Origin: a virus
Virus record (IMG/VR): IMGVR_UViG_3300025030_000038
Location: 1 to 64,000 of that record
DNA length: 64,000 nucleotides
Direction: 5' to 3' (one strand)
Made by a program: the position numbers and the translations under genes. Of the stretch, positions 61,476 through 62,363 are shown piece after piece (position 1 is the stretch's first letter; each line of letters begins with the position of its first letter). The notes below the pieces were generated by a model. That model did no database searches. It had not been told where the DNA came from and was given only the letters and a program-made list of their open reading frames with translations.

Positions 61476-62096
61476 ATGAAACTCTGTCAAAAATGTGGTT
61501 CCAGAATCCCAGCCCATATCGTGATTGAGGGTAAGAAAAGGAACCTCAAGAACAGGCTGTACTGCTTTGAATGCTCACCCTTCAAGGCTCACAATACCAA
61601 AGTGTTGGCTCCTAGCCCACACTCTCCTACCCCCACCCCCACGGATAAGCGGCGGCATACATCTGACCACCAACCAATCCAGCAACTTACCTGTGAACGA
61701 TGTGCCAGAGTCTACCTCCACAATGTCAAGCATAGATCCGGGCATACTCTCCGTTACTGTAACAGTTGTATGGTCAACACACGTCGGTTTGAGCGCAAAC
61801 TCAAGTGTATTGAGTATATGGGAGGTGAGTGCCAGAAGTGTGGGTACTCAAAATGTTCACGAGCCTTCCATTTCCACCACCTCGACCCCTCTTTGAAGTC
61901 CTGGCAAATTAGCGGGGGCCATTGTAGAAAATGGGAGCGAGTCAAAGAGGAGCTTGATAAGTGTGTTCTCCTATGTTCCAATTGCCACATGGAGCTTGAG
62001 GAGGAACTGGAGGTACTCAAGCGAGGCCCACGTACAACAGTTCTCAATGCCCTAAAAAAAGCGATCTCTGAAAAAAGTGGGCACACTGGAACTTGA
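61476..62096 (+). CDS. HNH endonuclease ending within the tRNA-Ile(TAT) gene
   Basis: The 206-aa product has three ribbon-like C..C sets (CQKCGS, CERCARV, CNSCM) and an HNH core (CQKCGYSKCSRAFHFHHLDPS..., LLCSNCHMELEE). Its last 19 nt lie inside the 3' end of the opposite-strand tRNA-Ile(TAT), whose T-loop supplies the TGA stop. It could be a homing endonuclease linked to the intron in that tRNA. A weak promoter is possible near 61440. Confidence 0.85.
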   Translation: MKLCQKCGSRIPAHIVIEGKKRNLKNRLYCFECSPFKAHNTKVLAPSPHSPTPTPTDKRRHTSDHQPIQQLTCERCARVYLHNVKHRSGHTLRYCNSCMVNTRRFERKLKCIEYMGGECQKCGYSKCSRAFHFHHLDPSLKSWQISGGHCRKWERVKEELDKCVLLCSNCHMELEEELEVLKRGPRTTVLNALKKAISEKSGHTGT

Positions 62097-62363
62097 ATCC
62101 AGGACCTTCCGCTTATCTTCCTACTCCCAATTTCGTGGGCCGGGGCTCCCCGTTGTAGGCTGGACTATATCTTCACCATCTCAGGTGCCTGGGTATCTAG
62201 TCTCTACGGCGCTCTCCCTTTTCGGAAGTTCCCTCGGTATTGTCTCCAGCATGACCCGCTGAGAGTTCCACCGATATCCCCAGATCCACCTACAGGATTC
62301 ACGTTCCCCTGTAGGGCTCATACACTAAGGCGGATGCTCTGACCAAAACTGAGCTATGTGCCC
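62078..62363 (-). tRNA. tRNA-Ile (anticodon TAT), interrupted by a group I intron
   Basis: The exons 62327-62363 (37 nt) and 62078-62116 (39 nt) join to a full tRNA: acceptor GGGCACA/TGTGCCC, D-arm GCTC/GAGC, TCCGC/GCGGA enclosing CTTATAA, T-arm CTGGA/TCCAG with TTCAAGT. The intron is placed after U34 (CTT|intron|ATAA), consistent with the usual last exon U and a final intron G. CCA is not encoded. Confidence 0.8.
62117..62326 (-). other. group I self-splicing intron (about 210 nt)
   Basis: The minus-strand intron carries the conserved core AAGATATAGTCC (62162-62173) and a P7 partner GACTAG (62197-62202). It starts with AGTG after exon U and ends with G. It has no ORF. Small size and position in an anticodon loop are typical of tRNA group I introns. 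Splicing is inferred from structure only. Confidence 0.8.

What the first reader, a model, noticed from the sequence alone, without database searches (positions are those of the whole stretch)
62078..62363. Group I intron in a phage tRNA-Ile(TAT) gene
The exons form a textbook tRNA only when about 210 nt are removed. The removed part has the group I core AAGATATAGTCC, a P7 partner, an exon U before it and a final G. Group I introns in phage tRNA genes are rare. The TAT anticodon reads the minor AUA codon, so splicing could control a specialised tRNA.
Basis: partly seen in the sequence, partly recalled or inferred. Interest (0 to 1): 0.75.

Follow-up and report, generated by a model that had tools for sequence, protein, structure and literature searches.

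The report
Group I intron in phage tRNA-Ile
A 485-kb phage carries a gene for the tRNA that reads the isoleucine codon AUA, and that gene is interrupted in the middle of its anticodon by a small intron predicted to splice itself out; such introns were thought to spare phage tRNA genes, yet I found dozens more in other phage sequences.

Summary
On the minus strand, 62363..62078, a tRNA-Ile(UAU) gene is split after U34 by a 210-nt intron (62326..62117). ARAGORN with introns allowed finds it; without, it is missed. Rfam's group I model gives only a sub-threshold score (23.3 bits; cut-off 50). However, a covariance model I built only from other phages' tRNA-Leu/Lys/Arg introns finds it at 74 bits, E=3e-16, as the only hit in 485 kb. 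P3, P4, P6, P7 and P8 show strong covariation, and the 5' splice-site U, terminal G, P1, P10 and P9 are all present. Another viral contig has the same intron in its own tRNA-Ile(UAU): introns 85% identical, exons 72%. So it is very probably a functional ORF-less group I intron. Splicing itself is inferred.

'Rare' needs correcting. A 2014 review said all known phage introns lie in protein genes, and papers I could search report none in phage tRNAs. Yet one pattern scan gave about 30 distinct intron-split tRNAs in viral contigs, nearly all after U34, plus one in cultured phage Atu_ph07. Close cellular relatives occur in tRNA genes of CPR bacteria. Nothing supports a splicing switch. The adjacent HNH gene belongs to a family common in phage tRNA arrays without introns.

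The parts
62078..62363 (-). tRNA-Ile(UAU) gene split by an intron
   Evidence: ARAGORN -i c[62077,62363] tat i(38,210); own splicer, one solution
62327..62363 (-). 5' exon, 37 nt, ends at U34 (...CCGCCUU)
62117..62326 (-). ORF-less group I intron, 210 nt, last base G (62117)
   Evidence: R2 leave-out model 74.3 bits, E 3.1e-16; Rfam 23.3 bits sub-threshold
62078..62116 (-). 3' exon (AUAAGCGGA...GUGUGCCCA), begins at A35
62317..62322 (-). internal guide sequence UAUGAG: pairs with C32-U33-U34 (P1, with a U34-G wobble) and with A35-U36-A37 (P10)
   Evidence: 6/6 complementarity to the joined exons in both Ile introns; about 0.2 (window) and 0.1 (L062) of shuffles also reach 6/6 somewhere in 45 nt, so supportive only
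62289..62315 (-). P2 hairpin
   Evidence: MFE fold; compensatory change against L062
62279..62284 (-). P3 5' strand (UCUGGG); partner 62188..62193 (CCCAGG)
   Evidence: covariation in all six P3 columns; in the MFE fold
62234..62274 (-). P4-P5 (P4 UCGGUG/UACCGA)
   Evidence: P4 98.6% paired, two pairs with double changes
62208..62233 (-). P6 region
   Evidence: covariation G-C to C-G; hairpin tip differs in a compensated way from L062
62198..62202 (-). P7 5' strand (GACUA)
   Evidence: 100% paired with 62163..62167, two columns with double changes in L122; P7 was left out of the CM structures
62174..62187 (-). P8 hairpin (CACC...GGUG)
   Evidence: covariation in three of four pairs
62163..62167 (-). 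P7 3' strand (UAGUC) within AAGAUAUAGUCC
62120..62159 (-). P9 domain (CCUAC/GUAGG enclosing two hairpins)
   Evidence: MFE fold; compensatory change of the inner hairpin against L062
61476..62096 (+). free-standing HNH endonuclease gene (206 aa), convergent, overlaps the tRNA 3' end by 19 bp; possible but unproven mobility partner
   Evidence: phrog_2255 HNH E 6.5e-32; relatives annotated HNH in phages

Best explanation
This is a functional, ORF-less group I intron in the anticodon loop of a phage tRNA-Ile(UAU) gene. After transcription of the tRNA array (Lys-Val-Arg-Ile, minus strand), the intron folds into the group I core. Its guide UAUGAG pairs with C32-U33-U34 and later with A35-U36-A37; exogenous guanosine attacks after U34, then U34 attacks after the terminal G (62117). 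This gives an intact tRNA-Ile(UAU), the one recognised tRNA of the phage that reads AUA without lysidine. The intron belongs to a lineage of tRNA introns shared by phages and CPR bacteria, best seen as a mobile or near-neutral element tolerated because it splices. Shown: gene anatomy, core covariation, homology to other tRNA introns, conservation in a second virus. Inferred: self-splicing chemistry, tRNA function, mobility.
For: ARAGORN -i and own splicer give one solution with exon U and terminal G. The joined tRNA folds perfectly. Leave-out model R2: 74.3 bits, E 3.1e-16, the only hit in 485 kb. Covariation: 93.4% of cells paired against 30-38% when slid, score 0.516 against at most 0.10, 0/500 shuffles, P7 included though it was never part of the model. 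Rfam RF00028 also points there, sub-threshold. Sister intron in L062's tRNA-Ile(UAU): introns 85% identical, exons 71.6%, with compensatory changes in P2, P3, P6 and P9. Guide complementarity 6/6 in both. Same position, after U34, in most of about 30 other phage tRNA introns. Some of those pass Rfam's cut-off.
Against: Rfam score is below the curated cut-off. No RNA data and no splicing assay. The fold energy of the intron alone is only modestly better than shuffles (z -1.96). P5 does not align cleanly between the two Ile introns. No promoter or terminator evidence beyond chance.
Confidence: 0.9

Rival explanations
1. Collaborative homing: the convergent HNH endonuclease (61476..62096) cuts intronless tRNA-Ile genes of competing phages near the anticodon, and repair copies intron plus endonuclease; the intron protects its own gene from the cut.
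For: HNH gene overlaps the tRNA 3' end by 19 bp; HNH-domain relatives lie 3 bp from an intron-split tRNA-Leu (L023) and, antisense, inside a tRNA-Met intron (L097). PDDEXK_5 enzymes occur inside one phage tRNA-Arg intron (L063) and free-standing 78 bp from another (L026). Collaborative homing is a described idea (PMC2988022).
Against: The same HNH family sits between ordinary intronless tRNA genes in many phages, so closeness to a tRNA is not specific to introns; a crude HNH-motif count shows no enrichment by intron tRNAs (2 of 26 against 32 of 196, biased set). Cleavage site unknown.
Confidence: 0.2
2. Splicing is a regulatory switch that controls supply of the AUA-reading tRNA.
For: AUA is the rarest Ile codon in the window and no other AUA reader was recognised, unless the CAU tRNA at 88286 is lysidine-modified.
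Against: No sensor, alternative fold or condition-dependent element was found; the same intron family sits in unrelated tRNAs; the two Ile introns differ mostly in ways that keep the core.
Confidence: 0.05
3. A dead insertion: a decayed intron in a tRNA pseudogene.
For: Low Rfam score; host tRNAs might suffice.
Against: All core elements, exon U, terminal G and guide intact; exons a perfect tRNA; 100% P7 pairing and compensatory changes against L062.
Confidence: 0.04
4. Assembly artefact or chance: no intron, only a spurious split tRNA.
For: Metagenome-derived genome.
Against: Identical in the deposited record LR745208; independent homologue in another virus; R2 E 3.1e-16.
Confidence: 0.01

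Closest known systems
Group I introns in bacterial/plastid tRNA genes: cyanobacterial tRNA-Leu(UAA), Azoarcus tRNA-Ile(CAU), Agrobacterium tRNA-Arg(CCU), cyanobacterial tRNA-fMet
   Same: Small group I intron in the anticodon loop; Leu(UAA) introns likewise lie after U34 (from memory); ORF-less size about 200-250 nt
   Different: Phage genome; tRNA-Ile(UAU); core signature GAGACUA/UAGUC with J8/7 AAGAUAU rather than the AAGAGAGAGUCC that I recall for cyanobacterial Leu introns; not aligned here
CPR/Patescibacteria tRNA group I introns (mentioned in passing, PMC8172020)
   Same: Share the exact core GCCGTAGAGACTAGATAC...AAGATATAGTCC; in tRNA anticodon loops, mostly 185-250 nt; weakly placed as sister group (support 52-56)
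   Different: Sit in Asp(GUC), Thr(UGU), Tyr, Asn, not Ile(UAU); most lie elsewhere in the loop; the pattern scan favours look-alikes
Phage group I introns in protein genes (T4 td/nrdB/nrdD, SPO1, Twort, crAss-like, Jug phages)
   Different: Host genes are protein genes; many carry an endonuclease ORF
Free-standing tRNA-array homing endonucleases (T4 SegB; HNH family phrog_2255)
   Same: The window HNH belongs to phrog_2255 and sits at a tRNA gene
   Different: Here the neighbouring tRNA carries an intron; target unknown; SegB is GIY-YIG

Membership tests
Group I self-splicing intron | Core helices P3-P8 with P3/P7 in pseudoknot relation | tested here: met
   Covariation of P3, P4, P6, P7, P8 over 12 introns, 93.4% paired, 0/500 shuffles; leave-out CM 74.3 bits
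Group I self-splicing intron | U at the end of the 5' exon in a U-G wobble pair of P1; G as last intron base | tested here: met
   U34 pairs with G8 of the intron in CUU/GAG; last base G62117
Group I self-splicing intron | Internal guide sequence complementary to both exons (P1/P10) | tested here: met
   UAUGAG 6/6 against CUU|AUA; weak alone by shuffle
Group I self-splicing intron | Two-step splicing with guanosine | not testable with these tools
   Needs RNA
Rfam RF00028 at curated cut-off (a detection threshold, not a defining trait) | Score of at least 50 bits | tested here: not met
   23.3 bits, E 0.0016; relatives L017 (68.6), L023 (61.5), L097 (50.3-51.2) do pass
tRNA-Ile(UAU) | Cloverleaf, UAU anticodon, Ile identity elements after splicing | tested here: met
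   identity elements from memory
Mobile group I intron with collaborating endonuclease | Endonuclease that cuts the intronless allele | not testable with these tools
   HNH neighbour present, target unknown
IC3 subgroup of tRNA introns | Subgroup-specific peripheral domains and core motif | tested here: inconclusive
   No P5abc and no room for P7.1/P7.2 seen in the sequence; subgroup models not on hand

The most novel reading that the evidence does not exclude
Phage tRNA genes host a widespread, overlooked class of group I introns that target the U34 position. Together with tRNA-linked free-standing endonucleases (HNH, PD-(D/E)XK) they form trans-acting homing pairs by which huge phages compete at each other's tRNA arrays, and they are exchanged with CPR bacteria.
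Probability: 0.2. Interest if true: 0.75.

Novelty: new member of a known kind. Interest (0 to 1): 0.5.

Why it matters
A 2014 review states that phage group I introns occur only in protein genes despite many phage tRNA genes (PMC3984707). This case and about 30 relatives show that tRNA genes are hit too, mainly at one site, and that default tRNA and Rfam scans miss many of them. Phage tRNA repertoires are therefore undercounted: Atu_ph07's tRNA-Leu(UAA) intron is not mentioned in its genome paper, and tRNA counts in the huge-phage survey came from tRNAscan-SE. Because Atu_ph07 is cultured, splicing of a phage tRNA during infection can be tested directly.

Tried and rejected
Default ARAGORN and Rfam at gathering threshold: miss the gene. 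Strict pattern for the Ile junction in IMG/VR: no hits, too strict. Pfam on the HNH gene: nothing convincing; PHROGs resolved it. BLAST of the intron in INPHARED: only the phage itself. Intronless tRNA-Ile(UAU) homologue as an empty site: the best exon matches inspected (L250, L251) are CAU tRNAs by ARAGORN, so no clean empty site. HNH enrichment at intron tRNAs: not found by a crude motif test. Promoter/terminator scan: at chance level. Tree of intron cores: window and L062 beside CPR tRNA introns, support only 52-60, and the CPR set was chosen by shared core, so no direction of transfer is claimed.

Full report
OBSERVATION. The window is the first 64 kb of a 485,040-base virus record, matching the deposited uncultured huge phage LR745208. 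The feature lies on the minus strand. Default ARAGORN and Rfam see 20 and 17 tRNAs and miss this one. With introns allowed ARAGORN reports tRNA-Ile c[62077,62363], anticodon tat, intron 210 nt from position 38. My own exhaustive splicer, which demands near-complete stems, an exon-final U and an intron-final G, gives exactly one solution: exon 1 62363..62327, intron 62326..62117, exon 2 62116..62078. The joined tRNA folds as a perfect cloverleaf (z -3.5). It is the last gene of a tRNA run Lys-Val-Arg-Ile; the parts of the genome scanned hold about 35 further tRNAs.

IS IT A GROUP I INTRON? Rfam's general model reaches 23.3 bits (cut-off 50), E 0.0016 in 1 kb, so Rfam alone would leave doubt. 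I therefore looked for relatives. A pattern linking the P7 3' strand to a T arm gave 97 IMG/VR stretches, of which 41 carried an intron-split tRNA by ARAGORN; after refinement and removal of duplicates about 30 distinct cases remain. Aligning 12 cores, the named structure P3-P4-P6-P7-P8 pairs in 93.4% of cells (slid controls 30-38%), covariation score 0.516 (slid at most 0.10; shuffled 0.185; 0/500 shuffles reach it), with double changes in 15 of 24 pairs, including two in P7. A covariance model from eight tRNA-Arg/Lys/Leu introns only, with both Ile introns left out and P7 not modelled, finds the window locus at 74.3 bits, E 3.1e-16, the single match in the genome. That settles homology to other phage tRNA introns.

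THE SISTER. IMG/VR contig 3300009181_000073 (L062) has a 210-nt intron at the same place in its own tRNA-Ile(UAU). Introns are 85% identical, exons 71.6%. P2, P3, the P6 tip and P9 change on both sides. In both, the guide UAUGAG complements CUU|AUA, that is P1 with the U-G wobble plus P10. This is the pattern of a working ribozyme under selection, perhaps with horizontal movement.

HOW IT WORKS (inferred). Guanosine attack after U34, then exon ligation after G62117, restores the anticodon loop CUUAUAA. The phage also has tRNA-Ile(GAT); the UAU tRNA reads AUA, the rarest Ile codon in a rough ORF set.

WIDER CLASS. Intron-split tRNAs seen: Arg(UCU), Leu(UAA), Ile(UAU), Lys(UUU), Thr(UGU), Asn(GUU), Met(CAU), and UCA-anticodon genes. 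Most lie after U34. Several contigs carry two or three (L097, L101, L039, L052, L030; huge phage LR756508 carries Lys and Arg, the Arg one only 175 nt). Cultured Agrobacterium phage Atu_ph07 has one in tRNA-Leu(UAA); its paper does not mention introns. IMG/VR contigs can include host DNA, so not every case is certainly viral, but LR756508, Atu_ph07 and very long contigs such as the 467-kb one of L045 are unlikely to be anything else.

CELLULAR RELATIVES. The core GCCGTAGAGACTAGATAC...AAGATATAGTCC occurs in 93 stretches of the GTDB genomes, nearly all CPR/Patescibacteria; 77 of the 93 fall in tRNA genes, mainly Asp(GUC) and Thr(UGU), none in Ile(UAU). A tree puts the two Ile introns beside these with weak support. 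Group I introns in CPR tRNAs are mentioned in passing in the literature.

THE HNH NEIGHBOUR. The convergent ORF 61476..62096 is an HNH endonuclease (phrog_2255, E 6.5e-32). Its relatives sit in tRNA arrays of Vibrio, Xanthomonas and Cronobacter phages and of IMG/VR contigs, usually beside intronless tRNAs. It is thus a tRNA-array homing-type endonuclease first; collaboration with the intron is possible, not shown.

KNOWN OR NEW. A 2014 review: all phage introns observed are in protein genes in spite of many phage tRNA genes (PMC3984707). Ten searches of the open-access library brought up no report of a group I intron in a phage tRNA gene in the listed papers and passages that I read. Subscription papers, most preprints and a 2025 group I database were not readable. 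The element itself is a standard group I intron; the host gene and genome type are what is new.

Noticed in passing
L122 1362-2012; L253 2080-4500 (LR756508): Another 484-kb huge phage has two intron-split tRNAs, Lys(UUU) 193 nt and Arg(UCU) 175 nt, the latter with compensatory P7 change (GGCCA with UGGCC in place of GACUA with UAGUC), followed by a HEARO RNA (RF02033) and an IscB-like 440-aa protein.
   Followed up: partly
L125 1251-1612 (MF403008, Atu_ph07): Cultured Agrobacterium jumbo phage has a 278-nt group I intron in tRNA-Leu(UAA) that its genome paper does not mention.
   Followed up: partly
L094 8908-9186, L100 2524-2918, L013, L098: tRNA genes with a UCA (opal-reading) anticodon split by group I introns: possible intron-bearing suppressor tRNAs in viral contigs.
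   Followed up: no
L152-L244: 77 of 93 stretches, nearly all CPR/Patescibacteria, have closely related group I introns in tRNA genes (Asp, Thr, Tyr, Asn, a few others).
   Followed up: partly
L026 4184-4801 and L063 1047-1499: PDDEXK_5 endonucleases occur both free-standing beside an ORF-less tRNA-Arg intron and inside another tRNA-Arg intron.
   Followed up: partly
G000:C1 about 87763-87837 and 222464-222540: In the same phage, a tRNA that ARAGORN reads with a four-base anticodon (ttta) and a tRNA-like gene with a UUA (ochre-reading) anticodon.
   Followed up: no
L062 979-1884 (-): A 301-aa zinc-finger (zf-FCS) protein of unknown function lies 56 bp downstream of the sister intron-tRNA; possible endonuclease.
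   Followed up: no
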